64,000 nt of DNA from Desulfovibrio psychrotolerans (GTDB taxonomy: Bacteria > Desulfobacterota > Desulfovibrionia > Desulfovibrionales > Desulfovibrionaceae): contig NZ_BLVP01000010.1 of assembly GCF_013340305.1 (NCBI RefSeq), positions 124,001 to 188,000 on the forward strand, in the 5' to 3' direction. Below, piece after piece: positions 36,079 to 51,708 of the stretch. Made by a program: the position numbers and the translations under genes. How positions within the stretch are numbered: the stretch's first letter is position 1; each line of letters starts with the position of its first letter. The notes under the pieces were generated by a model that ran no database searches, was not told the DNA's origin, and saw nothing but the letters and a program-made list of their open reading frames with translations.

Positions 36079-36205
36079 GCCTTCCCGTACCCCTCCCGCC
36101 CTTAATGTTTCCGGGCTGTTGAGCCTCCCCCCCCTGCAAGCATACGAATGATAATGGGTTATGCCCCTGCGCCTGTGTGTGAAGCAGGGGTGGAGCAGCC
36201 TTGCG

Positions 36206-37411
36206 TCAATCAGCCCGTAGCGCATCTGTAGGGTTCAGTTGAGACGCTCTCATCGCGGGGTAGATGCCGGCGCATAGTCCTGACGCAAGCGATGTGGCGC
36301 ATCCTATCCATAACGCTTCTTGCGGAATTGAATAGAGCAGGTTGTATAAGAGTGCGGTGCTTTTGGTTAGCGTAATGCCTACTGCTATGCCTAGAATCCC
36401 GCCTACTATGCACAGAATGACAGATTCCATGACAAATTGCAGTATTATGTCGGTTTGCGTTGCTCCAATTGCTCTGCGTATGCCAATTTCTTTTTTTCTC
36501 TCCGTGACAGCGGAGAGCATGACATTAACTACGCCTATGCCTCCTACTGTAAGTGAGATTATGCAGACAAATATCATTAGATTGCTTAACGTCGTGTTTT
36601 GTTTGGAAGAGAGTTGAAGTATCTCTTCTGCCTTAAGAATGGATGTTTGTTTAAAGTTGTTCTGCTTTAGGTAGTTATTAATAGCTGTTTCCGCTAGATG
36701 TATGTCTCCTTGTGTAGTCACGAGTGTTGTCATTGACTTGTTGATTCCGAATATTTTGTACAGACTGGCAAGTGGAAGAATGATTGTGTTGTTGATTTGT
36801 TCATATGAATTGGCGATTGCTGAGGCGCCTGACTTTTCAAGCTCGCCTATGATTTCAAGGTGATACCCGTTGATAGCGATATGTGTTCCGATAATAGGAG
36901 TTGATTCGCCGTACCTTAGTGCACGGGCTATGTCCGAGCCGAGAACGCAAACTAACAGGCGATCTTCCAAATGGTGTAAGAAGCGTCCTTCTCGCACTTC
37001 TAGCCGGGCGGCTCTCAGTAGGTCGGGTGTTGCTCCGAGAAAAGAGGTAGTTTTGGGTTGTCCCTGCAGCTTTAGAAAGCCGCTTTGCATGGACACAGGT
37101 GCGACAGTTAGCACCCCGGAGCAATGGGAGGGGATGTTTTGTAAAATATCCATGTGGGCATAAGGGGCGGCGTGGGGGATGTCGTATAAGGTCTTGATGG
37201 TCAGCGTGTTTTTGCCCATTTCTTCAAAGCGAGACATGGCCGTGTTTTTGATCATGGCGGTGCTTGCCACCATGGAGATTACCGATCCTATGCCTACCAT
37301 GATGCCAATTAATGCAAGGGCAGAGCGAATTGGATACAGAGTCAGGTTTTTTAAGGCGTCATAAACAATTGTTTTGACGGGCGGCATGTGTGTTCTCAGT
37401 AAGGGCATCAT
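36206..37411 (-). CDS. MacB/FtsX-type ABC permease, second of two
   Basis: A 401-residue permease: N-terminal TM (LIGIMVGIGSVISMVAS), a large periplasmic MacB_PCD domain (residues about 50-270), then three FtsX-type TM helices (LMIFVCIISLTVGGIGVVNVMLSAV, then ILQFVMESVILCIVGGILGIAVG, and a last helix near 370) with the conserved RRAIGAT motif. No ATPase domain is fused, unlike E. coli MacB. A shorter start at M9 (MPPVKT) is equally possible. Overlaps the neighbouring permease start by four bases. Base composition is clearly A+T-rich versus the flanks. Confidence 0.85.
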   Translation of the reverse strand: MMPLLRTHMPPVKTIVYDALKNLTLYPIRSALALIGIMVGIGSVISMVASTAMIKNTAMSRFEEMGKNTLTIKTLYDIPHAAPYAHMDILQNIPSHCSGVLTVAPVSMQSGFLKLQGQPKTTSFLGATPDLLRAARLEVREGRFLHHLEDRLLVCVLGSDIARALRYGESTPIIGTHIAINGYHLEIIGELEKSGASAIANSYEQINNTIILPLASLYKIFGINKSMTTLVTTQGDIHLAETAINNYLKQNNFKQTSILKAEEILQLSSKQNTTLSNLMIFVCIISLTVGGIGVVNVMLSAVTERKKEIGIRRAIGATQTDIILQFVMESVILCIVGGILGIAVGITLTKSTALLYNLLYSIPQEALWIGCATSLASGLCAGIYPAMRASQLNPTDALRAD

Positions 37412-38595
37412 CGGGTGTTTATCGCAACGGCAGGATTAAGGCGCGCAGCCCGTATTGCAGGGTAGGTGCCAGCACATAGACCAGCTCCGAACGATGCACC
37501 GCATCCGGCCCAGAAGGCGAGCATTGGAATCATGAATGGAAGATTGAAAATTATGGCAATAGCAAGACTCATTAGTGTTCCAATTGCGATGCCCAGTGAT
37601 CCGCCAATAAGGCAAAGGATTATTGATTCGAGCATGAACTGAAGTAGGATAGCTTGCCGTGTCGCGCCAAGTGCTCTTCGTATGCCTATTTCTTGTGTTC
37701 GTTCTGTTACCGAGGCAAGCATGATGTTCATAACACTAACACTGCCAACGATAAGAGAAGTGGCTCCAAGAATGCATAAAAGCTGTATGAGCAGGCCATC
37801 TTGTTGTGATCGTAAATTCAGTAAATCATCGGCGCATCGTACGTTAATTCGTCGATAGTCTTCTTGAATAAAATAAGATTCTATTTTCTTCTTTACGTCT
37901 TGTGGGGTGTTGTGAGTTGAAAGTATAGTGATAAGAGTTCCTGTGTCTCTTTCAAAAAGCCTGTATCGTGTGGAAATGGGAATGACAACGCCGTTGCTCA
38001 GTTGAGCTGGTCGAAATTCAGATGAACTTTCGGTGCGTTGGAGTACGCCTATAATAGTCAATGGACGCCCGTCTAAACGAAGTTGACTCCCTACTATGGA
38101 GGCGTGCCCGGAGCTGCGTAATTTTTCGGCAAGAGAAAAGCCGACAACGCAAACCATCTCCCCGTGATCCAGCGGGTGAATAAAACGCCCTGTCTCAAGC
38201 GAAAGCATTGTGACAGAAGCTAGTTCAGGTGATGCGCCAATAACGTGCGCTACGCTATTTTTTCCATTAAAAACAACGGTTGCTTGAGGGCCAGAAATAT
38301 AGGAAGCCGCCTGGTTGATTTCAGGAAAGATATCAGGAAGCTTTTGCAGGGTTTCGAAAGTAACTGGTTTCTTATGTGTTTCAGATGGGTTTTTTACCAC
38401 GATGATAGATATTGCATCAGTCCCCATTTCTGAAAATGCGGAAAGCGCCTGTTCTCTGATCATAGTGGTTCCGGCAAGCAACGCAATAACAGATCCAACG
38501 CCTGTTATGATTCCCGTAAGGGCAAGAAGTGACTTAAGCGGAGACGCAGATAGGTTTCTGAAAGCTCCATAAATAATGGTTTTAAGCGGGCTCAA
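37408..38595 (-). CDS. MacB/FtsX-type ABC permease, first of two
   Basis: A 395-residue permease with the same plan as its neighbour: N-terminal TM (LLALTGIITGVGSVIALLAG), periplasmic domain, and three C-terminal TM helices with RRALGATRQAILLQFMLESI. The periplasmic domains of the two permeases differ widely, so the pair probably forms a heterodimer. It overlaps the ATPase gene by about 14 bases, which implies translational coupling. Families of this type move peptides, lipoproteins or antibiotics from periplasm or inner membrane to TolC. Confidence 0.85.
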   Translation of the reverse strand: MSPLKTIIYGAFRNLSASPLKSLLALTGIITGVGSVIALLAGTTMIREQALSAFSEMGTDAISIIVVKNPSETHKKPVTFETLQKLPDIFPEINQAASYISGPQATVVFNGKNSVAHVIGASPELASVTMLSLETGRFIHPLDHGEMVCVVGFSLAEKLRSSGHASIVGSQLRLDGRPLTIIGVLQRTESSSEFRPAQLSNGVVIPISTRYRLFERDTGTLITILSTHNTPQDVKKKIESYFIQEDYRRINVRCADDLLNLRSQQDGLLIQLLCILGATSLIVGSVSVMNIMLASVTERTQEIGIRRALGATRQAILLQFMLESIILCLIGGSLGIAIGTLMSLAIAIIFNLPFMIPMLAFWAGCGASFGAGLCAGTYPAIRAARLNPAVAINTR

Positions 38596-39250
38596 TGACG
38601 CCGTCCTGCATTCTGAAACGAATATCGCATGTTCCTGCTACGGCAGGGTCGTGCGTGATAATGACAAGTGTGGTGCGCTCTTCTCTGTTTAGGCGTAAGA
38701 AAAGGCTCATTATGTCTTGTCCGGTCTGCTGGTCTAGTGCTCCTGTCGGTTCGTCAGCCAATACAAGCTTTGGTTTTGCGACAAGAGCTCTTGCCACCGC
38801 TACCCGTTGTTGCTGGCCCCCAGACAGTCGGGAAGGAAGTTGGTTCTGCCAGGCAAGCATGTCTACGCGGTCAAGCATCGCGCTGACCATTTCTTTTCGG
38901 TCTGCCTCGCCAACGCCGCCATAGACTAAGGGCAGGGCGATGTTTTCAAAAACCGTCAGCCTGGGCAAAAGATGGAACTGCTGGAATACGAAACCAATTT
39001 CGCGGTTCCGAATGCGCGATGCGTTTGCATCGTTGAGGCCAGAGGTCGCCTGGCCATTAAGGAGATATGTTCCGGAGTCCGGAGTTTCCAGCAGGCCAAG
39101 AATGTTCATTAAGGTGGATTTGCCACATCCGGAGCGGCCCACCACAGACACGAGCGAACCGGAATGAATCTCAAGATTAATGTTCTTGAGAACCTTCAGG
39201 GGGCTGTCGCCTAAAACAAATGTTTTACAAATGTCCTTAAGGTGGATCAT
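38582..39250 (-). CDS. LolD/MacB-type ABC transporter ATP-binding protein
   Basis: A 222-residue ATPase. Walker A is GRSGCGKST near residue 38, signature RLSGGQQQRVAVARAL and Walker B LVLADEPTGALD follow, with the D-loop and H in IITHD. It is a stand-alone nucleotide-binding subunit, so the system resembles LolCDE or heterodimeric antibiotic exporters rather than fused MacB. It overlaps hlyD stop by 4 bases. Confidence 0.93.
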   Translation of the reverse strand: MIHLKDICKTFVLGDSPLKVLKNINLEIHSGSLVSVVGRSGCGKSTLMNILGLLETPDSGTYLLNGQATSGLNDANASRIRNREIGFVFQQFHLLPRLTVFENIALPLVYGGVGEADRKEMVSAMLDRVDMLAWQNQLPSRLSGGQQQRVAVARALVAKPKLVLADEPTGALDQQTGQDIMSLFLRLNREERTTLVIITHDPAVAGTCDIRFRMQDGVIEPA

Positions 39251-40608
39251 GGGAGTTTTTTGTGTGCAGGTGACACGATGAATATTTCCTGGCCATGCTC
39301 AATGCCGTCTGCAACCTCAACAAAGTTGCCGGAAACACGGCCTGTAGAGATGGGGTGGTCAATGATGTTGCCCGTGCGACTATCAAGAATTTTTACCGTT
39401 CTCTGTGATCCGGCCACGGTAACTGCTTGTATGGGAATAACAAGTGCTGCGGGATTTTCGTACGTGATTATCTTTAGCGTTGATGTCATTCCCAGGCGCA
39501 ATTTTGACTGAAGCTCTGCTGGTACATTTTCTATAACGGCAACAATCTCAAATTTAGCACCTTCAGCTGGCATTCCGTATGATCTTTCATTTTTATCCGA
39601 TGGCGCTGCATTGGAAGAAATGTGTCGGATAGTGCCTTGCATGATAAAATCAAACCCATCTCCGGAAACTTCTACCCGTTGCCCCAAATGGATATTGTTA
39701 ATGTCTGCCTCATCAGCTCGGGATTTGACAGATAAACCGGTAATATTGCCTATAGTGAAGAGAAGTTCGCCTTGATCGACGGAGCGCCCCGGTTCTAGCG
39801 TTTTGGTTGAATCGCCGGAAGCTTCGAGTATTACCCCGTCAACAGGGGCAATAATCTTCTCGTTGTCCAGTTTTCTTGTGAGTGATTGCAAGAGGGTTTG
39901 TGCATTGGTGAGTTCAAGTCGTGCCATCTCTATGTTGTCGCGGCTGCCTTGAGCCAGTGTTGTTTTAAAAGACTCTTCAGCCTCAAGCAGGGTAGATTCT
40001 CTGTCGTTATAATCCTGTTCTGATGCGCGCAACTCGTTTCCGGAAATAATCCCCTTTTCAAAAAGGAATTTATTTTCTTGAAGTTTCAGATGCGCATTCT
40101 CAAGGCCGATTTTAGCTTTTATACAGGATCTGCGTGCAGATATTACTTCTGGCCCTCTTTCCCAATTTTCTAGTTCCTTTAGTTTTTGCGCAGATTTGAT
40201 TTGCTCTGCCTTTGTCGTGCGTAGTTGTCTTTCAATTTCGTCAGTTTCCATGGCGGCAAGAAGCGTGCCTTTCGTTACTTTGGTGTTGTATTCAAAAAAA
40301 ACTTTTTTTAAAATACCTTGAAATGGTGCGGTAATAGGCACATCTTCGAGTGGTGCAAGCCTTCCACTTAGCAAAATATTGGTTGAAAATTTTCGAGTTG
40401 TCACTTTGACAGATGAAAGACTATTATGATCGTTTGTAGATGTGGAAAATGCAGACTCATTAACCCATAAATATGCTGCTGTTGCCGCTAAAGTGACTGC
40501 TAAAAGTGTTGAGATAAGGAGGTGCTTCTTAAGTTTGTGAAGGGCCCTTCGTATTAATACGCTCGTCAGTTTGTGGTTGGTTGCATTGTTAGGCGTGTGT
40601 CCAGCCAT
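39247..40608 (-). CDS. MacA/HlyD-type periplasmic adaptor
   Basis: A 453-residue membrane-fusion protein: a TM anchor near residues 28-48, lipoyl half-domains around PITAPFQGILKKVFFEYNTKVTKGTLLAAM and KIIAPVDGVILEAS, a long coiled-coil hairpin between them, and a beta-barrel C-terminus (LRLGMTSTLKIIT). It links the permease to TolC. ATG 40608 is chosen because AAGGAG sits eight bases upstream, giving a 43-base overlap with the tolC-like gene. Confidence 0.88.
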   Translation of the reverse strand: MAGHTPNNATNHKLTSVLIRRALHKLKKHLLISTLLAVTLAATAAYLWVNESAFSTSTNDHNSLSSVKVTTRKFSTNILLSGRLAPLEDVPITAPFQGILKKVFFEYNTKVTKGTLLAAMETDEIERQLRTTKAEQIKSAQKLKELENWERGPEVISARRSCIKAKIGLENAHLKLQENKFLFEKGIISGNELRASEQDYNDRESTLLEAEESFKTTLAQGSRDNIEMARLELTNAQTLLQSLTRKLDNEKIIAPVDGVILEASGDSTKTLEPGRSVDQGELLFTIGNITGLSVKSRADEADINNIHLGQRVEVSGDGFDFIMQGTIRHISSNAAPSDKNERSYGMPAEGAKFEIVAVIENVPAELQSKLRLGMTSTLKIITYENPAALVIPIQAVTVAGSQRTVKILDSRTGNIIDHPISTGRVSGNFVEVADGIEHGQEIFIVSPAHKKLP

Positions 40609-42101
40609 CTGCCGTGCTCCTTATTATATTCCACCTGCCATGTCTCAAGGGTGGTATTCAGCGTTTCATCAAGCGTAGTGAGCGCATTGTGATGATTGAT
40701 GAGAGCATTAAGTTCTTGGGTTTCTCGCTCTACCAACTCGTTTTGAAAAGAAACAACCTGAAAGCTGTTAGAACGGCCTAGAGACAGCTTTTCTCTTTCG
40801 ACTTCCAGTTTTCTTTCTGACAGGTTGCGTGCTTTTGTTGCCAGTTGCAGTTTGGTCTTTGTGTTCTCAACGTCTCTGATGGCGTTAATTACTTCCAGCG
40901 TTATGTTCTCGCGAGTTTCAGTCAGTGCGATTTCAGCTTGTTTAAGGTTGGCATCTGCCCTGCGCATGTTTTGTTCTCGGGTAAGGTCGCCGTACAGTGG
41001 AATACGCAAGTTTACGCCTGCTTCCCATCTGTGTGTGCCTGTGTCTTTAGTGAGCGGACTGAGCTGCGAGGCACCTTTGTAGCTGGCATCTAGACTTAGG
41101 TCCCATTGTGCGTTGTTCTTGGCAAGCATGAGATTGATTCGGGCGCGCTCAACGTTCATTTCTGCCTCGAGGTGGTCTGCCCGTTTCTTCAAAGCAATTT
41201 CAATACATTGTTTAAGGTCTGGGTGGGTTGACGTGGGTTGTTGGTTTTCTCTGGGTATTATTCGTGTAGTGTTCGGCAGGTCTAAAACACCCAGCAGTTG
41301 AAGTCGCGCTTTGTCCACATTGTCAAGCGAGGATTGGTAAGCGTATTCCTGATTTGCAAGTTGTGATTCGCTTTGTATAATTTCATTTGCAGGAATGCGG
41401 CCTAGTTGTACAAGTAATTGATTAGACTCTAAGCTGTCTCTGGCGCGTTTAAGAGCAGATGCGTTAATTTCTAGTTGCTGAATGGTAGAGTAGTAGTGTC
41501 TGAATTGTCTTATTGTTTGGTTAACTGTGTTTGTTGTCTTCTTTTTCAAAGAGAGAAGGCTTGATTGTTCAGACATTTCTGCTAAAACAATAGATGCAGT
41601 GTTAACCTCTTGTCCGGCACCTTTTAAAAGTGGTTGGGAAAAATTTACTGACCAGCTGTTGCCGTTGTTGTCAGATCTTTTTCCAGAGGTATCAGCATAG
41701 CGATCCCAAGAGAATATTACTTTAGACCCTGTGCTGAATAGCTGTGTTACTTCTACTCCAGGTGTGACAGATGACTGCGATTGTATTCTAGATGCTTTGT
41801 CTGATAGGTTCTGTCCCCCGGAATATGTATTGCCTATGTCAAAATTAACGTCGGGCTTAAATTTATCGTGTGCGACTTCTAGGTCGAATTTGTCTGCGAG
41901 TCGTTCAATGTTTGCCATGGTTACGGTTCGATTGGTTCGTAGTGCAAGAGCAACAGCTTCATCTAAGTGTAGCTCGACCGGTTCCTGGCTTGGGAGAGAG
42001 GTGTCTGCATATGCATCTTTGCTGAAAAAGAAAATGAAAATTGAAATTGCTAAAAATGTAGCTGTGGTAATTGTTTTAAAAGTCGTCTTTTGGATGGGCA
42101 T
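40566..42101 (-). CDS. TolC-type outer-membrane efflux protein
   Basis: A 511-residue TolC family protein: signal peptide to about ADTSLPS (residue 36), then the duplicated alpha-barrel repeat (LDEAVALALRTNRTV; later LKQCIEIALKKRADHLEAEMNVERARINLMLAKN) and long coiled coils with ETRENITLEVINAIRDVENTK. It is the first gene of the transporter set and lies downstream of a hairpin and a candidate promoter. Confidence 0.9.
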   Translation of the reverse strand: MPIQKTTFKTITTATFLAISIFIFFFSKDAYADTSLPSQEPVELHLDEAVALALRTNRTVTMANIERLADKFDLEVAHDKFKPDVNFDIGNTYSGGQNLSDKASRIQSQSSVTPGVEVTQLFSTGSKVIFSWDRYADTSGKRSDNNGNSWSVNFSQPLLKGAGQEVNTASIVLAEMSEQSSLLSLKKKTTNTVNQTIRQFRHYYSTIQQLEINASALKRARDSLESNQLLVQLGRIPANEIIQSESQLANQEYAYQSSLDNVDKARLQLLGVLDLPNTTRIIPRENQQPTSTHPDLKQCIEIALKKRADHLEAEMNVERARINLMLAKNNAQWDLSLDASYKGASQLSPLTKDTGTHRWEAGVNLRIPLYGDLTREQNMRRADANLKQAEIALTETRENITLEVINAIRDVENTKTKLQLATKARNLSERKLEVEREKLSLGRSNSFQVVSFQNELVERETQELNALINHHNALTTLDETLNTTLETWQVEYNKEHGRWLDTRLTMQPTTN

Positions 42102-42130
42102 GTGTGTACCGAGGGTGGCTTCTAGTGTAT

Positions 42131-42158
42131 AATATAATGTGGTTTTAGCCTATTGCTA
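42131..42158 (-). promoter_or_regulatory. candidate promoter of the TolC-type operon
   Basis: On the minus strand TAGCAA (42153-42158) and TATATT (42131-42136) are separated by 16 bases, about 30 bases before the tolC start. The -35 box is poor, so the transporter may instead be cotranscribed with the small membrane genes. Confidence 0.35.
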
Positions 42159-42193
42159 CGGATTGTCTTGCAGTGATGTGAGGTCTGTTAGCT

Positions 42194-42227
42194 CTGGTGG
42201 CATTGGTTGTATGGCCAATGCCACCAG
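42194..42227 (-). repeat. hairpin repeat, copy 1
   Basis: A perfect 13-base-pair inverted repeat (arms 42194-42206 and 42215-42227) with an eight-base loop. A second copy at 43289-43322 differs in only two bases. Both lie about 75 bases past a small membrane gene on the coding strand and have no T run, so they are not plain terminators. Confidence 0.75.
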
Positions 42228-42299
42228 GGTTTCAGTTTGGTGTGATGGTGGTTGCGTGTGATCAGTTTCTGTTTCTGCGTGTTGAATTGCCTTAAGGAT

Positions 42300-42620
42300 T
42301 TACCATCTTCCTAGAAACATAAAGAATGAGAAAAGAGAGATAATTCCAATTATGCTAGTTTGAATTAATTTTAGTGTTATAAACTTGTTTTTCGGTTCAT
42401 TGGTGATTACGTTATTTGAATTGCCTTTTTTGTTTTCAGTAATCTTTGTTTTATCGTCTATGATTTCGATTAGCTGTGCGACAAAAGCAAGTACAGACAC
42501 TATTAAGAATGAGTATCTGTATATCGCATACGGTCCTGTGATTTGACGGGTCATGAGATAATAGAGAAGAAGACTGAAAAAAGCCGTGACTAGTGCGAAT
42601 AGGATTGATTTTGCATTCAT
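42300..42620 (-). CDS. small three-TM membrane protein, paralogue 3
   Basis: A 106-residue hydrophobic protein of unknown family: TM near residues 5-25, a second at 33-53 (YRYSFLIVSVLAFVAQLIEI), a hydrophilic Asn/Lys-rich loop near 55-83, and a C-terminal TM with LFSFFMFLGRW. It shares opening (MNAKSILFALVTAFFS) and layout with 43398-43715 (MNARHILLAFLTASLS). AAGGA lies about ten bases before ATG. Function unknown; it sits upstream of the exporter in the same direction. Confidence 0.7.
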   Translation of the reverse strand: MNAKSILFALVTAFFSLLLYYLMTRQITGPYAIYRYSFLIVSVLAFVAQLIEIIDDKTKITENKKGNSNNVITNEPKNKFITLKLIQTSIIGIISLFSFFMFLGRW

Positions 42621-42689
42621 GTGGCTACTATCCTTTTGAATACGTTTTGTATTGTGTTTTCAATTATGATATGCTCAAAAGTTTCTGTT

Positions 42690-43010
42690 TCATGCTTTTA
42701 GAAACATCGTGAAGCAAAAGATGAATGCTACGGAAAGTAGCAGGTTGCGAATAATATTGCGATTTATCTGTTCTGTGTCGTTGTTTATTGGTTTGAATGA
42801 AGTGTCGTTTTCGTTCTTTTGTGCAATTTGCTCAGATGTAGAATCATCTTTTGTATAAACAAACATGGAGGACAGGGTGATCATGGACACAAGCAGGTAT
42901 CCATATTTTAAGGCAGCTTGCCTTCCTTCTGGCAGGTTAAGCATGGCATAGCAAAGAAGTATTCCGAAAAGGTTTGCAACAATGCCTGTAATTAAAAGTT
43001 TCATTTTCAT
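42690..43010 (-). CDS. small three-TM membrane protein, paralogue 2
   Basis: A 106-residue protein beginning MKMKLLITGIVANLFG with TM segments near residues 5-24 and 34-52, an Asp/Asn-rich loop about 53-85, and a closing TM ending CFTMFLKA. Layout matches its two neighbours but sequence is more diverged. AAGAAGG lies five bases before the start. Function unknown. Confidence 0.65.
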   Translation of the reverse strand: MKMKLLITGIVANLFGILLCYAMLNLPEGRQAALKYGYLLVSMITLSSMFVYTKDDSTSEQIAQKNENDTSFKPINNDTEQINRNIIRNLLLSVAFIFCFTMFLKA

Positions 43011-43288
43011 TTTTTGCCTTCTTGTTCGTTAGTTATGAGTCATGTTGGATAGCATAAAAATCATGTTTGTCATATTCAGCATTGTCGGTATCGATGATGT
43101 TTTTTATGAAAACTTTGCATTGAATGCAGGGTATGTAGTGTCGAATGCTATCGACACTTCTTCGGTGTGTTTTGTAGTGTTATGTGTTGTTTTGTTGTCT
43201 GCTTGTATTGGTCAAAAGCGTAAAGAATGAGCTGGGCTACTCTCGATAGATATGGCTTGTCTTGTAATGCTGTGAAGTCATTACAGTT
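43011..43288. other. gap between small membrane genes with a perfect hairpin
   Basis: No convincing gene. The stretch contains a perfect inverted repeat GTGTCGA/TCGACAC at 43137-43156 with a six-base loop. A 62-codon plus-strand frame (43042-43230) exists but has no ribosome-binding site; I do not call it. Confidence 0.4.
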
Positions 43289-43322
43289 CTGTTGGCATTG
43301 GTTGTATGGCCAATGCCATCAG
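43289..43322 (-). repeat. hairpin repeat, copy 2
   Basis: Same sequence as copy 1 apart from two substitutions, one of which leaves a single mismatch in the 13-base stem. The similarity extends another 30 bases (43257-43288 against 42163-42193) and into the adjacent gene, so the hairpin was copied together with the gene. Confidence 0.75.
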
Positions 43323-43397
43323 AGATTCAGATTAATGTAATGGTGGGAGCGTGTGGCCTTGACTTATTGTGGTGAACAGACTCGCCTCAGTGGCTCA

Positions 43398-43715
43398 TTA
43401 TTTTCCGAAATACATAAAGCATGAGAAAAGAACAATAACGGTAAGTATGCTGGATTGGGTTGTGTTTTTAGTTAAAAAATTCTTTTTAAAGAAGCTTGAC
43501 TCATTTTTATTAGTACTTTTAATGTCAGTATTAATGTTTCTTGCTTTTTCTTCTCCGGCCGTGGCTAGCTGGGCGATAAGTGCAAGTAGTGCTACAAGCA
43601 AAAAAGAGTGTCTATATGTTGTCAACTTGTCTGCAGCTTGATGGGCGATGAGGACATAGAGAATAAAGCTTAATGAAGCTGTAAGAAACGCTAGCAGTAT
43701 ATGTCTTGCATTCAT
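43398..43715 (-). CDS. small three-TM membrane protein, paralogue 1
   Basis: A 105-residue protein beginning MNARHILLAFLTASLSF with the same three-TM plan: TM 6-26, TM 34-54 (YRHSFLLVALLALIAQLA), a Lys/Asn/Ser loop, and TM near 85-103 ending SCFMYFGK. AAGGA precedes ATG by about ten bases, and upstream bases resemble those before 42620. Function unknown; first of the three in transcription order. Confidence 0.7.
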   Translation of the reverse strand: MNARHILLAFLTASLSFILYVLIAHQAADKLTTYRHSFLLVALLALIAQLATAGEEKARNINTDIKSTNKNESSFFKKNFLTKNTTQSSILTVIVLFSCFMYFGK

Positions 43716-43877
43716 ATGGTCACTTTTCCTTAATCTATTCTAAAAGGGTGTCTTGCCGGTATATTCCGCATTGCAGTAATGAAAATTCCAGTTCTTACGT
43801 CGAAAAGCCTCATCCTCCCTGTCTTCGCGTTACGTTACTGGTTTGAATTTGCATTTCATTCTCAATGGGATCTTGAA

Positions 43878-43905
43878 AAAAAACAACGTGGATCCGTTGT
43901 TTTTT
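43878..43905 (-). terminator. bidirectional intrinsic terminator
   Basis: An 11-base-pair perfect stem (AAAAAACAACG with CGTTGTTTTTT, six-base loop) with T runs on both strands. It closes the glycan operon on the minus strand and insulates the A+T-rich island. Confidence 0.9.
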
Positions 43906-43974
43906 ATGCACCTGCCAAGTGCCCCTGAGAAGTTAATGCACACCTTGACAATAAGTGTCAATATAAACTTGCCG

Positions 43975-45042
43975 TTACATCGTAGACGCAGGCACCCCCA
44001 TAAGGAACACTCCCTCGCCAATCCACAGGCCATGGTAGGCACGCCACGCATCCCGCTCTTCAGGTAATATGATGTGCTCCACCGCTATGGTGTAAGGCTG
44101 AGGAAGCAGGGCGCGCACTGCCGGGCCCAGGCGGGGAAGATCGCTTTTTTCCAGAGTCACGGGCAATTCTATTGTGCTGTGCTGATGCAGCACTTCGTTT
44201 TGGATGAGCTCCGAGAGCTGCGACCACAGGTCGGGCGTGTGCTGTGATGCTGGCGGTTGCTGGTGACCGTTGAGCCGCAGGCGGAAATCAAAATGGGTGG
44301 TCTGCCTTGCCAGTGCCGGTCTGGACCGTATGTACCTGTTGTTGCACAACTGTTCATGACGCATCACGGCGGAGTTGCACTGGTCGTGCACACGGTAGAA
44401 ATAGAGGCGCTCCGGTATGAAGTGTACCTTATCCGGCCCGGCAAGCTCTGCCATGGGCAGGTAGAGCGAAAGGTCGCCAGCCGCGCGGAAGTATCTCCCG
44501 CTTTCATCGCGGAACGTGGCATCGTCCAGAAGCCCGAACAGGTAAGCTTTGAATGAGCGTAGCTGCGAGAAGCACCATGCCTGTTCGCGAACAGGCACGC
44601 CGCGCAGCAGCGGGCCGCCGATGGAGTGTTTCTGTCTCTCAATGGTCTCATCGGTATACACAATGTCGTAGCCCTGCTGATGGGCATCCCACAAGCGTTG
44701 CAGGCAGTCCGGGCGGATAAAATCGTCCCCGTCCAGCACGGCCACCACATCGGATGGAGCAAGGTGGAGTGAACGCAGCGTGGCCAGCGTGTTGCCCATG
44801 AGCCATGCCCGCTGGAAGCCCGAATGCACCGTTATGCGCGGGTCATCGGCTGCGTGGCGGGATGCGAGGCGTGCCGTTCTGTCCTGCGAGGCATCGTCTG
44901 CAACCAGGGCGGTCCATTGTGTAAAGGCCTGATTCCGCAAAGAATCAAGGCAGATATCAATGTAGCGCTCGCAGTTGTAGCACGGGATGACCACATGGAA
45001 CCGGCTCGGGGCAAGGGCGCTTTTCGGTATGGTGTCAGGCAT
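43975..45042 (-). CDS. family 2 glycosyltransferase
   Basis: A 355-residue GT-A fold enzyme. The nucleotide-binding start FHVVIPCYNCERYIDICLDSLRNQ and the DxD-type VVAVLDGDDFIRPDCLQRLW are typical of GT2. The C-terminal half is variable. No TM, so it acts at the cytoplasmic face. It is the last gene of the glycan operon, 58 bases after the previous one, and lies against the terminator at 43878. Confidence 0.88.
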   Translation of the reverse strand: MPDTIPKSALAPSRFHVVIPCYNCERYIDICLDSLRNQAFTQWTALVADDASQDRTARLASRHAADDPRITVHSGFQRAWLMGNTLATLRSLHLAPSDVVAVLDGDDFIRPDCLQRLWDAHQQGYDIVYTDETIERQKHSIGGPLLRGVPVREQAWCFSQLRSFKAYLFGLLDDATFRDESGRYFRAAGDLSLYLPMAELAGPDKVHFIPERLYFYRVHDQCNSAVMRHEQLCNNRYIRSRPALARQTTHFDFRLRLNGHQQPPASQHTPDLWSQLSELIQNEVLHQHSTIELPVTLEKSDLPRLGPAVRALLPQPYTIAVEHIILPEERDAWRAYHGLWIGEGVFLMGVPASTM

Positions 45043-45100
45043 GGCGTTTACTCCTGAGGATGTGGGGGATTGCGGAGGGCGGTTGTCCGGTGTCAGCGGC

Positions 45101-46360
45101 TCAGCGAGGCGTTTCCTGTACCGCAGCCTGAAGCACCTGCGTCAGTGCCGCAAGCTGCCTTTCCCTGTCGTAGCAGGCCTGCACGTGTGCCCTTCCGGCC
45201 GCGCCCAGCGCGGCGGCAAGCGCAGGAGAGCGGGCCATGCGGCGCATGTGGTCGGCCATGGTGGCGGCATCGTGTTCATGGCACAGCAGGCCGGTGTGCT
45301 CATGCACTACGGCTTCGCGGATACCTGCATGATACGTGGCCACAACAGGCAGGCCCGAGGCAGCCGCCTCCAGCACGGCGTTGGGCGTGCCTTCCTTGTC
45401 GCCGGTGGGGGCGGTGACGGAATGCTGCACAAAACAGCGCGCCCCGCGCATAGCCTGCGCAACCTCGTCATGGGAAACGGCTCCGGGAAAAGACACGGCG
45501 TGCGCCACACCAAGGCAGGCGGCAAGGCGGATGCACGCCGGACGCAGCACACCATCACCCAGCATGACCAGAGTGGCATCGGGTATGTCGGCGTGCACGG
45601 CGGCAAAGGCCGCAAGCACCGTTTCCGGGGCCTTTTTGTCTACAAATCGCCCAACGCTGACGAACCGGGGCGGGGCATCCTGCGGCGAAGCAGCAGTGAA
45701 CATGGACGCATCTACACCGTAGGGGATGACGTGCAAGCGGTCTTCGGGCGCGCCAAGGCGCAGCAGGTCCTGCCGCATTTCCTGCGAAACGGCTATAACG
45801 GCGGCGGCGTGCTCAAAGAGTGCGGCGTAGCCCGCAGCGTACTTGGCAAGCACAGGGCAGAGCGAAGCGTCGTAACCATGGAAGTGCGCCACCAGCGGAA
45901 TTTGGGCCTCACGGCAGGCTGGCAGCAGGGCCACTCCCGTGGGGCCGTATTGCGCCAGCACCACATCCGTGCGGCCGGAGCGCAGAAACCGGGCCATGTT
46001 CATGGCAGCCTGCCCGTGCGTCTGCGTTTCCGCCTTGCCCGAGGGGGAGAAGAGCTGCGCAGGTTCCTGCGGCAGGCCGGGGTGTAGCACGTTGTCCGCA
46101 GTATCCCGCAGGGCCATGTGGCCTCCGTGCAGCACGGCGTGCACGCCGGATAATCCCCGGATATGGGCACGGATGAACGTTTCGCATTCCGGTCCGGGAT
46201 TGGGGTGCGCAAGGCAGATGCGCAGTGCGGCACCGGAGACGCGCCCGGCGGCGGATTCCGCCTGCGGAGCGGTGCGGGGCGCATGGGCTGTTTCGGTCAT
46301 GCCAGTTCCCTTTATGCCAGTTCCATTCGTGCTTGTGCCATGTATGAATGTTCCGGTCAC
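45101..46360 (-). CDS. family 4 glycosyltransferase
   Basis: A 419-residue GT-B enzyme. The C-terminal half shows the GT4 pattern FVSVGRFVDKKAPETVLAAFAAV, then AGAVSHDEVAQAMRGARCFVQHS and EGTPNAVLEAAASGLPVVATYHAG. The start is uncertain: a GTG at 46360 overlaps the upstream stop, but the first 20 residues are a Gly-Thr repeat (HGTSTNGTGIKGTG), so MTETAH at 46300 may be the real beginning. Confidence 0.85.
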   Translation of the reverse strand: MTGTFIHGTSTNGTGIKGTGMTETAHAPRTAPQAESAAGRVSGAALRICLAHPNPGPECETFIRAHIRGLSGVHAVLHGGHMALRDTADNVLHPGLPQEPAQLFSPSGKAETQTHGQAAMNMARFLRSGRTDVVLAQYGPTGVALLPACREAQIPLVAHFHGYDASLCPVLAKYAAGYAALFEHAAAVIAVSQEMRQDLLRLGAPEDRLHVIPYGVDASMFTAASPQDAPPRFVSVGRFVDKKAPETVLAAFAAVHADIPDATLVMLGDGVLRPACIRLAACLGVAHAVSFPGAVSHDEVAQAMRGARCFVQHSVTAPTGDKEGTPNAVLEAAASGLPVVATYHAGIREAVVHEHTGLLCHEHDAATMADHMRRMARSPALAAALGAAGRAHVQACYDRERQLAALTQVLQAAVQETPR

Positions 46361-48411
46361 GACTGTTCGGGTGCGGCGGGAGTGCAGGCATCAGGCAGGG
46401 GAGAAGCGCACCCGCGCTCGCCGTGCCGGGCTTCCGGTGCCGGGGTTCCTGCGTCCGCATGGGGCGCAAAAGAGGGCTTGCGGGCGGTGGCCCACAGGCC
46501 GGAGCACATGAGCCCTTCATGAAAATGGCTCGGGGGATTGTCCTGCGCGGTGAGCAGCCGGACAACCGGAGCGGCGGCGAAAGAGAGCAGGGGGCGCAGA
46601 ACGCGCAGGTAGCCGCTCTGCAGGGAACGGCGGCGGATGTACAGGCCCAGCATCTGAGCCATGGCCGCATCGAACCCGCCCAGCGGCCGTACCTGCACAT
46701 CGGCAAAGCCAGTTGATTGCAGCAGGCGCTCCAGCGTCCACGGGGTGTAGCGGTAGGCATCACAGGGCACATCGTGCAGGGGCCAGAGAAAGGGCACGGT
46801 CAGGAAAATCAGGCCGCCCGGTGTAAGAACGCGGTGCGCCTCTGCCAGTACGCGGGCCGGGTCCGGGCAGTGTTCCAGCACCTCGGTGAGCACCACGGCA
46901 CCTGCCTTGCCCGGTTCCATGGGCAGGGTGCGTCCGTCCCATGGCATATCCCACGGCGGCGGGGCGTCATGGGGCATATCCTGAGGACCGTAGCCGCCCT
47001 GCGGCATGTCTGCCGTCAGATAGCGGGTGACGGCGGGGGCATCCAGAAACAGCGTGCGGTACGGGGCGCATCCTGCCCCCATGTCCACCACCGTTCCCCG
47101 GAACTGGGGCAGGGTGTGCGTGAGGGCGGCAAGGATGCTGCGGCGGACGGTATACAGGTCCACAAAGCCGGGGCGGCAGCGGGGGCGCAGAAACGGGTGG
47201 TGCGGGGGCAGCAGGCTGGCTGCGGCTGCCGTGAGCGCCCGGAAAGGGGTTGCGCGGTCATCCTCGCGGATGCCGACAGACGGGGGCAGGCAGAGCCTTA
47301 CGGGCATGCGGACGGGCTGCGGGCGGGCAGATGCACCCTGCGTGGCGATGAGGTGCGCCCACGCATCGGCACAGGCATCGGGCGAAAACCGTTCCCGCAC
47401 AAGGTCGCGGGCGTTGCGGGAAAGACGGGCAAAGGTGTGCGGGTCGCGCAGGGCACGGGCCGCTTCTTCAAGATCGCGTTCCGGTTCATGGAGCAGAAAA
47501 CCGGTTTCTCCGTGGCGGATAAGTTCGGGCACGCCGCTCTCCACGGGGGTGGAAAGAGGCACAAGGCCGTGGGCCATGCCTTCCAGAAGGCACAGGGGCA
47601 TTCCCTCGTATTCCGACATGAGCAGCACCGCATGGTGGGTGCGCAGCAGGGCGGGCATGTTCGCGCTGTCCTGCGGAGGCAGCAGCGTGACGCGGGCATT
47701 TGGGTGGGCGGCGAGAATAGCTTCCACCTCTGCGCGCTGCGGTCCGTTGCCCGCTATGGTTGCCTGCGTGTCCGGGAGGGTGTGCGTGAGCCTGCACAGG
47801 GAGCGCGTAACAAGGCTGATGCGTTTCTGGGTGTCGGCGAGCCTTCCGGAATAGAGGATGCGCAGGGGCTGGTCCGGGTGCATGCGCGGCAGAAAATCGT
47901 CATGGGGAAAGACCGCGCTGGAGGGAATCTGCACCACACAGGGGGTGTGTTGCTCCACCATGCGTTTGAGATGGTCGGAAACGGCAACCCACGCATCCAT
48001 GGCCCGCTCCTGCGATGTGCGCAGGAAGAGTTGGGCCAGTTGCCTGTGGAACCCGTCGTCCGAGCGCAGCACGCCTATGCAGCGGATGCCGCGCCGTTTC
48101 AGGTGCATGGCGGCGTAGTAGGCGGCGGGCACGATGTTGGGGACAAACACGGCGGGCGGGCGTTGCTGCACGGCGGAGAGTATCCAGCGCACACGCTCTT
48201 CCGTGGTGGCGTGGTAGGGGGCGTGCTGGCACGGCACGCCCGACCTGTGCAGAGCGTTTAGCGTGGGGCAGGCGCGTACATCCCCGAAGGTAAGCAGCAG
48301 GCATTCCGCCTCTATGCCGCGCTCCCGCAGGGCGGGCAGCAGGCGGCGCAGTCCGGCGTTGGGCCCGCCCACATAGCCGGGGCGGTCGTAGGTGCAGAAC
48401 AGGGCTTTCAT
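46357..48411 (-). CDS. glycosyltransferase-methyltransferase fusion
   Basis: A 684-residue protein with two enzymes in one chain. Residues 1 to about 350 are a GT4 glycosyltransferase (SGRLADTQKRISLVTRSLCRL; EYEGMPLCLLEGMAHGLVPLS). Residues about 400-640 are a class I SAM methyltransferase with GTVVDMGAGCAPYRTLF and VVLTEVLEHCPDPARVLAEAHRVLTPGG. This points to coupled transfer and methyl capping of a sugar. It overlaps both neighbours by four bases. Confidence 0.85.
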   Translation of the reverse strand: MKALFCTYDRPGYVGGPNAGLRRLLPALRERGIEAECLLLTFGDVRACPTLNALHRSGVPCQHAPYHATTEERVRWILSAVQQRPPAVFVPNIVPAAYYAAMHLKRRGIRCIGVLRSDDGFHRQLAQLFLRTSQERAMDAWVAVSDHLKRMVEQHTPCVVQIPSSAVFPHDDFLPRMHPDQPLRILYSGRLADTQKRISLVTRSLCRLTHTLPDTQATIAGNGPQRAEVEAILAAHPNARVTLLPPQDSANMPALLRTHHAVLLMSEYEGMPLCLLEGMAHGLVPLSTPVESGVPELIRHGETGFLLHEPERDLEEAARALRDPHTFARLSRNARDLVRERFSPDACADAWAHLIATQGASARPQPVRMPVRLCLPPSVGIREDDRATPFRALTAAAASLLPPHHPFLRPRCRPGFVDLYTVRRSILAALTHTLPQFRGTVVDMGAGCAPYRTLFLDAPAVTRYLTADMPQGGYGPQDMPHDAPPPWDMPWDGRTLPMEPGKAGAVVLTEVLEHCPDPARVLAEAHRVLTPGGLIFLTVPFLWPLHDVPCDAYRYTPWTLERLLQSTGFADVQVRPLGGFDAAMAQMLGLYIRRRSLQSGYLRVLRPLLSFAAAPVVRLLTAQDNPPSHFHEGLMCSGLWATARKPSFAPHADAGTPAPEARHGERGCASPLPDACTPAAPEQS

Positions 48412-49535
48412 GAACGTGTTCCGTGGGCTGTCTGCGCGGAAGGACGACGGGAATAAGCCGGGGCGGGCAAAGCCTTCCTGACAGATTCTGCCGCCTGAGG
48501 AACCGGTGTGGCTGGTTTGGCTTGCGCGACTGGTGATGCTGGTGATGCTGGCGATGCTGGCGAAACTGGTACAGCTGGCGTGCCGTGCGAATGGGGCGAA
48601 TGCGGCACAAGAGGCCCGTCCGCAACAGCGTTCGGGTGCGCGGCGTGGCAGGGAGCGGGGAAGGGGTGCAGCAGCCGTTCCGCATCCTGCTCCGTCAGGG
48701 ACCAGTGTACGGGCTGGTCCGGATGAAGGTCGAACAGGGGCAGGGCGTAGAGCAGGGGCAGGGATTCTCCGTCTGCGGTTATGCTGCCGGGGATTCCCAT
48801 AACGCCAAGGGAAGTCTCGCCCCCTGTTTTATAGGCCACGCGGGGCGGTGCATCATTCTCAGATCGGGCGTCCGAGCAAGGTTCAGGCCCGTCGCCTGCC
48901 CACAGGGTGTCGGTACGCAGATAGGCCACCGCGCCGTCAAAATGCTGGAACGGAGGAAGCCACTGGCTGCCCGCAGGCTTATCCCACGGGGTTTCGCCGT
49001 CTTGCCCGCGTAGCCGTGCCCCGCCGGACGTTTCGGTCTGGAACGGCATGGTCACGCTAGGGGCGGATGCCGGAACGGACGGGGCCGTGTGCAGCCACGC
49101 GGGGTTGCAGTTGACCGGGGTAGGCAGCAGGGAGAGCAGGGCGTCTGCATCTGCACCTTCGCAGTGCGCCGCCAGCAGGCTGCGTATGCGCGTGGCGGTT
49201 ACGGGGCCAAGCCCCGGAGAAACGGCCAGTATGCGACGGGCAAGGGCCGCTCCTTGCGGCAACGCTGTGCGCAGGTGACGGCGGATGGCCCAAAGGGCCG
49301 AAACCGTATCCGTGCCGGTGTCGTCTGCGGGAAGGGGTACGACATGCACGGGAATGCCTGCCCTAAGGAAGGCTTGCTCCCGTCCGGGCAGCACAATGGC
49401 CAGCGGGCGCACGGCACCCAAGGCCGCGAGCACGCGCGCGGTATGGGCCGCAAGGGCAGGGCCAAGCGGGGACTGCTCGAACAGAAAGCGTTCTGCGGCG
49501 CTGGCGTGGCAGGCGAGAATGCAGGCATCCATCAT
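48408..49535 (-). CDS. unknown protein of the glycan operon, possible nucleotidyltransferase-like N-terminus
   Basis: A 375-residue protein I do not recognise. The first 150 residues (PLAIVLPGREQAFLRAGIPVHVVPLP) have the look of a Rossmann-like or sugar nucleotidyltransferase fold but lack a clear signature. The C-terminal 60 residues are Pro/Ala/Ser repeats (SPASPASPASP) caused by a short tandem DNA repeat. It overlaps neuA and the fusion gene by four bases each, so it is translated with them. Confidence 0.6.
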   Translation of the reverse strand: MMDACILACHASAAERFLFEQSPLGPALAAHTARVLAALGAVRPLAIVLPGREQAFLRAGIPVHVVPLPADDTGTDTVSALWAIRRHLRTALPQGAALARRILAVSPGLGPVTATRIRSLLAAHCEGADADALLSLLPTPVNCNPAWLHTAPSVPASAPSVTMPFQTETSGGARLRGQDGETPWDKPAGSQWLPPFQHFDGAVAYLRTDTLWAGDGPEPCSDARSENDAPPRVAYKTGGETSLGVMGIPGSITADGESLPLLYALPLFDLHPDQPVHWSLTEQDAERLLHPFPAPCHAAHPNAVADGPLVPHSPHSHGTPAVPVSPASPASPASPVAQAKPATPVPQAAESVRKALPAPAYSRRPSAQTAHGTRS

Positions 49536-50485
49536 AGCGGAATCCCGAAATCATACAGGTTTGCGGCAACAGCGCTGTGCGCAAGGGCAAGGTCGTGTTC
49601 CGTGTCGATATCTATCAGTTCCAGCGGGTTGGAGACGAATTCCATGTGCTTGTGCGTAATGTGCGCGGGAAAGACGTTGCGGCCCGAAAAGTGGCCCAGC
49701 GGTTTGAAAAAGGTCTGCTCCGGGTCATGCAGGTGTACACGGCGTGGGGGGGACTTGGGGGCATGCCCCTGTGCTGTACCCGTTTGCGCCGCACTGTCTG
49801 CATGGTTGGTCCCATGGGCAGCTTTCGCACTGCCCATGCCTCCTTCATCAGCCGCATCAGTCGTATCATCTGCATCAGCTGCATCATTCCCATCAGTCCT
49901 GCCATTCTTGCCGCTCTTGGAGGCGTCTTCAGTATCCGCGTCACAGGGGCGGAACAGCGCCGTGCGGGAGGTGGGCGTGCGGAAGGCGGATTGCACAGAA
50001 CCGCATTGCTGCGTCAAGGACACCAACCGCGCTAGATGGTCCCTGTTGCGGAACGGGTTGGTGGGGGCAAGGGTGATGATGGTTCTGACCGGGTACTCCT
50101 CATCCACCAGGTGACGCAGCAGATAAAAATAGGCCCAGTAGGAGCTGCACCGGGCGGTGGCAAATTCCGCCGGTCTGAGGAACGGAACCTCCGCCCCGTA
50201 GTGGCGTGCGATTTCGGCGTAGCGGGGGCTGTCTGTGTTCACGACAACCCTGTCCACTCCGGGCAGGGCACGGGCGATGAGGATGCTGTACGCCATGAGG
50301 GGCAGGCCGCAGACCTCGCGGATATTCTTGTCCGCCACCCGCGTGGAGCCTGCGCGGGCGGGAATCTGAACCACGGTTTTCGACAGGCCGCCGGAGAACC
50401 GGGCACGCCAGTCCGTGAGCGGCATTTCCGTGTTGCGGAAGTAGTGGTTCACCACCTCCTGCTGGCGTCGTTTCATATCTGACAT
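49532..50485 (-). CDS. neuA: acylneuraminate cytidylyltransferase-like protein with low-complexity insert
   Basis: A 317-residue NeuA-like enzyme that would activate a nonulosonic acid as a CMP sugar. VVQIPARAGSTRVADKNIREV (N-terminal nucleotide loop), VVNTDSPRYAEIARHYGA and LAPTNPFRNRDHL are characteristic. In the middle, residues about 170-240 are an Asp/Ala/Gly/Thr-rich insert (DAADADDTTDAADEGG) with no counterpart in the family. The C-terminus DIDTEHDLALAHSAV closes the fold normally. Confidence 0.75.
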   Translation of the reverse strand: MSDMKRRQQEVVNHYFRNTEMPLTDWRARFSGGLSKTVVQIPARAGSTRVADKNIREVCGLPLMAYSILIARALPGVDRVVVNTDSPRYAEIARHYGAEVPFLRPAEFATARCSSYWAYFYLLRHLVDEEYPVRTIITLAPTNPFRNRDHLARLVSLTQQCGSVQSAFRTPTSRTALFRPCDADTEDASKSGKNGRTDGNDAADADDTTDAADEGGMGSAKAAHGTNHADSAAQTGTAQGHAPKSPPRRVHLHDPEQTFFKPLGHFSGRNVFPAHITHKHMEFVSNPLELIDIDTEHDLALAHSAVAANLYDFGIPL

Positions 50486-50619
50486 GCGGCTACCTGTGAC
50501 TACCTATGGCTATCTGCGGCTGCCTGTGGTTGTGGCGGGCGCGGGGAAAAGGCGCGTGCCCGTAGGTGTTGCGTCTGCTGCCCGTGCATATGTCCTCGGC
50601 GTCCGTTCTTCGTGCATTT

Positions 50620-50684
50620 GGCCTTCGCATCTGGTTTTTGCGTCAGGCTTTCGCGTCTGGCTTTCGCATTTGGCCTTCGCGTCT
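50620..50684. repeat. 13-base tandem repeat, five copies
   Basis: Five consecutive copies of a unit of the form GGCYTTCGCRTCT occupy 50620-50632, 633-645, 646-658, 659-671 and 672-684. The surrounding 260-base gap between neuA and the decarboxylase gene holds nothing else recognisable except a second, weaker CTACCTGTGA-type repeat near 50487-50530. Confidence 0.85.
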
Positions 50685-50745
50685 GGTCGGGGTCGCTGCC
50701 GTGGCCTTCCTGTGAACCGGTTCGTCCCGGAAGCGTTCAGAGTGT

Positions 50746-51708
50746 TCAGGGCGTTGCCGTCCTTTCAGAAAGCAGCGCATCAAAATAGGCTATGGTCCTG
50801 TCCAGTCCGGCCTCCAGTTGCACAGAGGGGAACCAGTCCAGTTTTTCCTGCGCAAGGGCGATATCCGGCTTGCGCTGCATGGGATCATTGACCGGCAGCG
50901 GCCTGAATTCTATGGACGAGGCACTGCCCACCTTGGCTATGACCGTGCGGGCAAGCTCCAGAATGCTGAATTCCACAGGATTCCCCAGATTCACGGGGCC
51001 GGTAAAGCCATCGGGCGTGTGTTCCATCATGCGGATGAAACCTTCGATCATGTCGTCAACGTAGCAGAAGGAACGTGTCTGGGAACCGTCTCCGTAGATG
51101 GTGAGGTTTTCCCCTTTAAGCGCCTGCACGATGAAATTGGAAACCACGCGCCCGTCGTCCGGGTGCATGCGTGGGCCGTAAGTGTTGAAGATGCGCACCA
51201 CCTTTATGTCCAGCCCGTACTGGCGGTGATAGTCGAAGAACAGCGTCTCCGCGCAGCGTTTGCCCTCGTCATAGCAGGCGCGCGGGCCTATGGGGTTCAC
51301 GTTGCCCCAGTAGGATTCCGTCTGCGGGTGCATGGCGGGGTCGCCGTATACCTCCGAGGTGGATGCCTGAAAGATGCGCGCGCCGGTGCGCTTGGCAAGC
51401 CCCAGCATGTTAATGGCACCGTGGACCGAGGTTTTAACCGTCTGCACGGGGTCGTACTGATAGTGCACGGGCGAAGCGGGGCAGGCCAGATTGTAGATTT
51501 CGTCCACCTCCACATAGAGGGGAAAGGTGACATCGTGTCGCAGCACCTCGAAATAGGGGTTCTCCAGCAGGTGGATGATGTTTGGCTTGTTCCCTGTAAA
51601 AAAATTGTCCACGCACAGCACGTCGTGACCTGCCTCCAGCAGGCGTTCGCACAGGTGGGAGCCGAGAAAGCCCGCGCCGCCGGTGATGAGAATGCGTTTT
51701 CTGTTCAT
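50746..51708 (-). CDS. NAD-dependent sugar epimerase/decarboxylase, UDP-glucuronate decarboxylase-like
   Basis: A 320-residue extended short-chain dehydrogenase. [16 protein letters not shown] binds [21 protein letters not shown] (catalytic Tyr-Lys) and [22 protein letters not shown] match UDP-glucuronate decarboxylases that form UDP-xylose. It overlaps the next glycosyltransferase by four bases. Confidence 0.85.

What the first reader, a model, noticed from the sequence alone, without database searches (positions are those of the whole stretch)
42300..43715. Three paralogous small membrane proteins directly upstream of the exporter
Proteins of 105-106 residues with three TMs, a hydrophilic loop and similar start motifs occur side by side in the same direction as the exporter. 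They match no family I know and could be immunity, cargo-recognition or export-accessory proteins of an undescribed system.
Basis: partly seen in the sequence, partly recalled or inferred. Interest (0 to 1): 0.7.

Follow-up and report, generated by a model that had tools for sequence, protein, structure and literature searches.

The report
Private small membrane-protein trio beside exporter
Three related, previously unclassified small membrane proteins sit just ahead of the genes for a pump that spans both bacterial membranes; they may serve that pump or its cargo, but no relative was found elsewhere and what they do is unproven.

Summary
ORFs A (42300-42620), B (42690-43010) and C (43398-43715), - strand, are real, related genes: A-C 37% and A-B 26% identical, far above segment-preserving shuffles; B-C alone is weak. 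A and C have three hydrophobic segments, B two clear ones. They match no family above cut-off in Pfam or NCBIfam, and nothing significant in PHROGs, PADLOC or PDB.

They lie 198 nt upstream of a five-gene MacB/Lol-type exporter (TolC, adaptor, ATPase, two permeases). Both lie in a low-GC block that two sister species lack beside the same kinase gene.

The trio was found in this genome only: 0 of 198 other family genomes, nothing credible in 347 class and 394 phylum genomes, and in 0 of 24 related exporter loci. So its link to the exporter rests on one locus. In 8 of 24 of those loci the slot upstream of TolC holds small signal-peptide proteins instead, a weak enrichment (P 0.04-0.07).

Best reading (0.35): inner-membrane partners of the pump, working like YknW. 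Passengers, immunity proteins and cargo remain open.

The parts
43398..43715 (-). small membrane protein C, 105 aa, three hydrophobic segments
42690..43010 (-). small membrane protein B, 106 aa, two clear hydrophobic segments and a weaker middle one
42300..42620 (-). small membrane protein A, 106 aa, three hydrophobic segments
43254..43355 (-). repeat element with stable hairpin, downstream of C
   Evidence: 80% identical to the element after A over 101 query bases, 71-nt core 85%; fold z -4.3
42160..42262 (-). repeat element with stable 13-bp hairpin (42194-42227), downstream of A and upstream of TolC; no T run follows it
   Evidence: no terminator-like site listed there
40566..42101 (-). TolC-family outer-membrane channel
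   Evidence: Pfam OEP 1.9e-42
39247..40608 (-). HlyD/MacA-type periplasmic adaptor, without the PAS domain seen in 7 of 8 relatives scanned
   Evidence: HlyD_3 5.5e-12; RND_mfp 9.9e-31; relatives
38582..39250 (-). ATPase, LolD/MacB-like
   Evidence: ABC_tran 3.8e-36; LolD 2e-69, below that model's cut-off
37408..38595 (-). MacB-type permease 1
   Evidence: MacB_PCD 8.2e-27, FtsX 3.6e-21
36206..37411 (-). MacB-type permease 2, 37% identical to permease 1
   Evidence: MacB_PCD 9e-23, FtsX 4.9e-20; identity

Best explanation
A, B and C are three diverged copies of a private family of small inner-membrane proteins that work with the neighbouring MacB/Lol-type trans-envelope exporter. Shown: they are real paralogous genes, they lie upstream of and on the same strand as a TolC-adaptor-ATPase-two-permease operon, and trio and exporter share a low-GC block absent beside the same kinase gene in two sister species. 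Inferred: each spans the inner membrane about three times and acts beside the permease pair, helping the pump assemble or handing it a membrane-associated substrate, as YknW does and AS-48E may do for other MacB-type pumps. The copies would differ in the substrate or state that they serve. Also inferred: the hairpins after C and A let the small proteins be made in larger amount than the pump.
For: Paralogy and coding character. Position and shared low-GC block. Absence of trio and exporter beside the matching kinase gene in two sister genomes. MacB-type operon. In 8 of 24 related exporter loci the same slot holds small signal-peptide proteins, in some loci several; enrichment over control is weak (19 of 109 control stretches; one-sided P 0.07 with 24 loci, 0.04 with the 21 that have enough upstream DNA). 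Hairpin elements after C and A. Precedents read in passages: YknW modulates assembly of the MacB-type YknXYZ (PMC4887032); AS-48E and AcrZ (PMC5985334).
Against: No homologue of the trio in any of 24 related exporter loci (tblastn, E<=1e-3) or 4 plasmid loci, so relatives of the pump occur without such proteins. 198 nt and a hairpin separate A from TolC, while the five exporter genes overlap one another, so joint transcription is not shown. YknW is a Yip1-family protein and AS-48E has four predicted helices; A, B and C gave no Yip1 match.
Confidence: 0.35

Rival explanations
1. They are passengers: orphan genes of a strain-specific low-GC block in a variable glycan locus, with no working link to the pump.
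For: The slot next to the kinase gene holds quite different genes in two sister species. The adjacent glycosyltransferase is found at E<=1e-30 in 1 of 10 genomes of the genus, the window's own. No recurrence beside other exporters. Separate hairpins and gaps.
Against: Same strand, adjacent, and sharing the low-GC character of the exporter rather than of the 59-67% GC stretch upstream.
Confidence: 0.27
2. They are immunity proteins: each sits in the inner membrane and protects the producer from a membrane-active peptide that the exporter carries out, as MceB does for microcin E492.
For: Size and three-segment layout resemble MceB (95 aa, three hydrophobic domains; passages of PMC8021565). A and C coding DNA is 59% identical although their downstream elements are 80-85% identical, which fits fast change of the proteins. 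A MacB-type pump takes part in resistance to a bacteriocin in AS-48EFGH (passages of PMC5985334).
Against: In the gaps between the genes, 28 start-to-stop frames of 20+ aa were listed and only one (32 aa, + strand, inside the hairpin element) has a Shine-Dalgarno-like word; frames overlapping A-C were left out. Of nine proteins scanned none is a peptide-maturation enzyme. No match above cut-off to any immunity family in Pfam or NCBIfam.
Confidence: 0.23
3. They are the cargo: hydrophobic small proteins put into the membrane, then pulled out of it and released through TolC.
For: MacB-type pumps take small Sec-exported proteins from the periplasmic side (STII) or export a 10-kDa protein (dispersin) (passages of PMC5985334). 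8 of 24 related exporter loci have small signal-peptide proteins in the same slot.
Against: By a crude rule B and C have no signal-peptide cleavage site and A only an implausible one inside its first hydrophobic segment. No precedent known to me (recalled) for three-helix membrane proteins as MacB cargo.
Confidence: 0.1

Closest known systems
YknWXYZ of Bacillus (YknW accessory membrane protein)
   Same: A membrane protein encoded with a MacB-type permease, separate ATPase and adaptor; modulates assembly of the pump (passages of PMC4887032).
   Different: YknW is one Yip1-family protein in a Gram-positive cell; here three paralogues of about 105 aa without Yip1 match, with a TolC partner.
AS-48EFGH of Enterococcus
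   Same: Membrane protein of unknown role with a MacB-like pump (passages of PMC5985334).
   Different: AS-48E is predicted to have four helices; it belongs to a known bacteriocin cluster.
MceB, microcin E492 immunity protein
   Same: 95 aa, three hydrophobic domains, integral membrane (passages of PMC8021565).
   Different: No sequence comparison with MceB was made; its toxin gene and exporter type differ from anything here (recalled).
Aat/CexE composite secretion system
   Same: TolC + adaptor + LolD-like ATPase + LolC/E-like permease, with the small substrate gene within 400 bp upstream in 18.4% of the systems of that study (sections 5 and 8 of PMC7943197).
   Different: The substrate there is a Sec-exported, glycine-acylated surface lipoprotein (abstract); no acyltransferase AatD among the nine proteins scanned here.
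VarACDEF of Vibrio cholerae
   Same: MacB-type tripartite pump with two separate permeases and a separate ATPase (passages of PMC5595328).
   Different: No such small membrane proteins among the parts named in the passages read; varB is described as a 40-aa adaptor remnant.

Membership tests
MacB-type tripartite exporter (the operon, not the trio) | FtsX/MacB_PCD permease | tested here: met
   both permeases above Pfam cut-offs
MacB-type tripartite exporter (the operon, not the trio) | adaptor and TolC channel in the same operon | tested here: met
   overlapping ORFs; transcription not tested
YknW-like accessory (trio) | Yip1-family membership | tested here: not met
   no Yip1 row for A, B or C in Pfam at E<=10, within HMMER's filters
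YknW-like accessory (trio) | changes assembly of the pump | not testable with these tools
   needs a bench experiment
Microcin/bacteriocin immunity protein | small integral membrane protein | tested here: met
   hydropathy and helix predictions; B less clear; location not shown by experiment
Microcin/bacteriocin immunity protein | adjacent bacteriocin gene | tested here: not met
   no credible small ORF in the gaps of 42102-43974; frames overlapping A-C and the rest of the genome were not examined for one
Microcin/bacteriocin immunity protein | sequence match to a known immunity family | tested here: not met
   Pfam and NCBIfam scans, nothing above cut-off
Aat/CexE system | AatD (Lnt-like acyltransferase) | tested here: inconclusive
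   none among nine proteins; the gene may lie elsewhere, not searched
Aat/CexE system | small cargo with cleavable signal peptide | tested here: not met
   crude rule: none in B and C, implausible site in A
LolCDE | works without adaptor and TolC | tested here: not met
   adaptor and TolC genes present in the operon
LolCDE | LolD equivalog score of the ATPase | tested here: not met
   233.5 bits against a cut-off of 307.75

The most novel reading that the evidence does not exclude
A clade of MacB/Lol-type exporters in this phylum keeps, just upstream of TolC, a 'partner slot' with quickly replaced, often multiple small envelope proteins: soluble signal-peptide proteins in some species, three-helix membrane proteins here. 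Each set would be the dedicated cargo or cargo-handler of its pump, and the window's trio would be a Gram-negative, multi-copy counterpart of YknW.
Probability: 0.13. Interest if true: 0.6.

Novelty: new variant of a known kind. Interest (0 to 1): 0.34.

Why it matters
If the trio serves the pump, it gives a TolC-linked MacB system with dedicated small membrane subunits. A 2018 review says that such a subunit (YknW) is not found in conventional Gram-negative tripartite systems, and leaves open whether small membrane proteins affect MacB (passages of PMC5985334). If the partner-slot pattern holds, gene neighbourhood would give a way to find unknown cargo of MacB-type exporters. If the trio is a passenger, it is one more set of orphan genes in a variable locus.

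Tried and rejected
Homologue searches that found nothing: genome contigs with the trio alignment (352 stretches matched a pattern, none confirmed) and with the adaptor (74 stretches, none confirmed), viral contigs with the trio (457 stretches, none confirmed), plasmids with A only. The pattern scans depend on short conserved stretches and can miss distant relatives. The phylum search listed 17 other genomes at E 0.004-0.1 (14-18.5 bits, against 150-165 for the trio itself), mostly partial matches, inside longer frames or with stops; I treated them as chance and did not read them. The class search listed two others at E 0.003 and 0.006, each with two stops inside.

Fold search of the low-confidence model of C against the PDB gave nothing at E<=0.001; NINJ2/NINJ1 filaments and diacylglycerol kinase were among the top rows at E about 2-3. 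I drew nothing from that. Weak library hits (for example TIGR04370 E 0.0025 for A, conj_pls20_p028 E 0.0019 for C) are far below cut-offs and differ between the paralogues.

A known RNA for the hairpin elements: two Rfam hits in 42000-44000, both far below gathering score. A factor-independent terminator: no such site listed at the elements. A genome-wide repeat: two copies, one palindrome self-match and three matches at E 4-8. An integron attC site was considered by eye only, not tested.

The 62-aa + strand ORF at 43042-43230 was rejected as a gene: no ribosome-site word, coding score 1.2 against 20-31 for A-C. A fourth decayed copy between B and C: not seen by eye in the three - strand frames. 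tRNA-targeted insertion: the five tRNA genes of the window lie at 15.6-17.5 kb. Exact direct or inverted repeats of 11 nt or more between 36060-36320 and 43700-44300: none printed.

The signal-peptide count in relatives uses a crude home-made rule with unequal filters (the exporter slot was filtered somewhat more strictly than the control). Control stretches lie upstream of any open frame of 300+ aa in the same loci, not only of true genes. A second control, the opposite strand of the same slots, gave 2 of 24 loci (L088, L096). 3 of the 24 loci (L073, L089, L094) have less than 2.6 kb upstream on the contig. Relatedness between the small proteins of different loci was judged by eye. The window itself does not fit the signal-peptide pattern: only A gave a hit, an implausible one.

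Full report
What is there. On the - strand, in order of transcription, lie C (43715-43398), B (43010-42690), A (42620-42300) and, 198 nt further, TolC (from 42101), an adaptor, an ATPase and two permeases. The five exporter ORFs overlap one another by 43, 4, 14 and 4 nt. The small genes are separate: 387 nt between C and B, 69 nt between B and A. All three have Shine-Dalgarno-like AAGG(A). The block has low GC: 37-39% over 42-44 kb and 43-49% over 36-42 kb, while the 44-50 kb stretch upstream runs 59-67% and the window average is 59%.

Are they real and related? Shuffling the 42102-43974 stretch with dinucleotides kept gave three or more ORFs of 95+ aa in 7 of 1000 cases and three such with two or more hydrophobic segments in 0 of 1000. 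Pairwise BLASTP gives A-C 37% (5e-15), A-B 26% (4e-9) and B-C only 0.014. Shuffles that keep the membrane/loop pattern give Z 12.2, 8.0 and 2.3; 0, 0 and 57 of 2000 reach the observed score. So B is tied to the family through A. Codon positions are conserved in the order 2>1>3 in each pair, which argues for coding. A and C have three hydrophobic segments by a 19-residue window; B has two and a weaker third. AlphaFold2 gave three long helices for C and A at low confidence (mean pLDDT 63.3 and 66.5; pTM 0.37 and 0.51). Charges do not fix the topology: the long loop carries 6 K/R and 4 D/E in A, 4 and 7 in B, 7 and 4 in C.

Do they belong to a known family? No match above any curated cut-off in Pfam or NCBIfam, only E>=0.03 in PHROGs and PADLOC, one chance-level row in the PDB by sequence (E 4.1) and nothing at E<=0.001 by fold, from a low-confidence model. 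By genome: 1 of 199 in the family at E<=0.01, the window's own; in the class 3 of 348 at E<=0.01, where the two others score 18-19 bits with stops inside; in the phylum 18 of 395 at E<=0.1, where the 17 others score 14-18.5 bits against 150-165 for the trio. The sets overlap. I read the weak rows as chance without following them up. Public genome contigs and viral contigs (trio) and plasmids (A only) gave none.

The exporter. Both permeases carry MacB_PCD and FtsX, the ATPase is LolD/MacB-like, the adaptor is HlyD/MacA-like, the channel is OEP. The two permeases are 37% identical to each other. A pump with two separate MacB-type permeases is not new: VarACDEF has this (passages of PMC5595328). 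Relatives of the adaptor at 31-38% identity occur in 8 of 198 other family genomes (E<=1e-20), 14 of 347 other class genomes (E<=1e-60, the same 8 included) and 10 of 394 other phylum genomes (E<=1e-50). I fetched these 24 loci (8 + 6 + 10). All 24 show one permease place for the window's two permeases, and none holds A, B or C at E<=1e-3. Four plasmid loci with weaker adaptor matches, of seven such plasmid records, also lack the trio.

A pattern in the slot upstream of TolC. In 8 of the 24 loci the same-strand stretch within 2.6 kb upstream of TolC encodes small proteins with a signal peptide by a crude rule, several of them in some loci. Control stretches upstream of other open frames of 300+ aa in the same loci gave 19 of 109; the opposite strand of the same slots gave 2 of 24. 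One-sided Fisher P against the 19 of 109 is 0.07 for 8 of 24, and 0.04 for 8 of the 21 loci with enough upstream DNA. So this is a hint, not a result. Of eight such small proteins scanned in Pfam, one has a domain above cut-off (Lcl_C). The MacAB-TolC pump exports a small protein, STII, that Sec first brings to the periplasm, and related pumps export dispersin and CexE (passages of PMC5985334; abstract and sections 5 and 8 of PMC7943197), so these could be cargo. The window's trio lies in the same slot but is predicted to stay in the membrane.

Genome context. The upstream neighbour is a glycosyltransferase found at E<=1e-30 in 1 of 10 genomes of the genus, the window's own; the neighbour beyond the exporter is a kinase gene that is about 86% identical in two sister species. 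In those two species I read 15-17 kb beyond that kinase: tblastn at E<=1e-5 found neither exporter nor trio there, but other genes, among them sugar-nucleotide and glycosyltransferase-like ones. Whole-genome searches of the nine other genomes of the genus also gave no trio (E<=0.01) and no adaptor relative (E<=1e-20). The stretch is thus a variable locus. This supports joint gain or loss of exporter and trio, but also fits the passenger reading, since many other genes vary there.

The repeat element. After A and after C lies a roughly 100-nt element, 80% identical, with a 71-nt core at 85%. It folds into a stable hairpin on the coding strand (z -4.9 and -4.3; 0 of 200 shuffles as good in each case). 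Coding DNA of A and C is 59% identical, so the non-coding element is better conserved than the genes. That suggests constraint on the element, recent exchange between its copies, or fast change of the proteins; I cannot separate these. No T run follows, and no terminator-like site was listed there. An RNA processing or attenuation role is inference.

How it most likely works. I favour small inner-membrane partners of the pump (0.35), with passengers (0.27), immunity (0.23) and cargo (0.10) as rivals. The accessory reading rests on position, joint absence in sister species and precedent: YknW modulates assembly of a MacB-type pump (passages of PMC4887032), and AS-48E and AcrZ are named as similar cases (passages of PMC5985334). 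It is weakened by the lack of any second locus. Immunity has a resemblance in size and layout to MceB (passages of PMC8021565), but no toxin gene was seen in the gaps nearby.

Novelty. The pump is a known kind. The trio is a family without relatives in what I searched. A full-text search for 'PAS domain' + 'membrane fusion protein' + 'HlyD' + 'MacB' and one for 'Desulfovibrio' + 'MacB' + 'TolC' + 'small protein' returned no paper; the genus name in the second was my guess, as no call names the organism. The paper library holds only open-licence papers, and these two searches do not show that nothing is in print.

Noticed in passing
L015:8410-10182, L016:8416-10179, L017:8478-10253, L018:7839-9608, L019:8357-10126, L020:8702-10459, L021:8521-10263: In 7 of 8 exporter relatives scanned (of 24 fetched), the periplasmic adaptor is fused to an N-terminal PAS domain, which would lie in the cytoplasm (inference): a sensor built into the pump adaptor. 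L022 and the window's adaptor lack it. One paper search with four terms found none.
   Followed up: partly
L019, L020, L021, L022, L072, L076, L077, L093, upstream of TolC: Small signal-peptide proteins, in some loci several and by eye paralogous, precede TolC in 8 of 24 related exporter loci; possible cargo. Enrichment is weak.
   Followed up: partly
window 42160-42262 and 43254-43355: A hairpin element downstream of A and C is better conserved (80-85%) than the coding DNA of those genes (59%) and was found as two copies only in the genome.
   Followed up: partly
window 36206-38595: Two MacB-type permeases, 37% identical, where all 24 related loci examined show one permease place.
   Followed up: partly
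window 36206-54215 against L060 and L061: The stretch next to the kinase gene at 33721-36078 holds different gene sets in two sister species, apparently a variable surface-glycan locus.
   Followed up: partly
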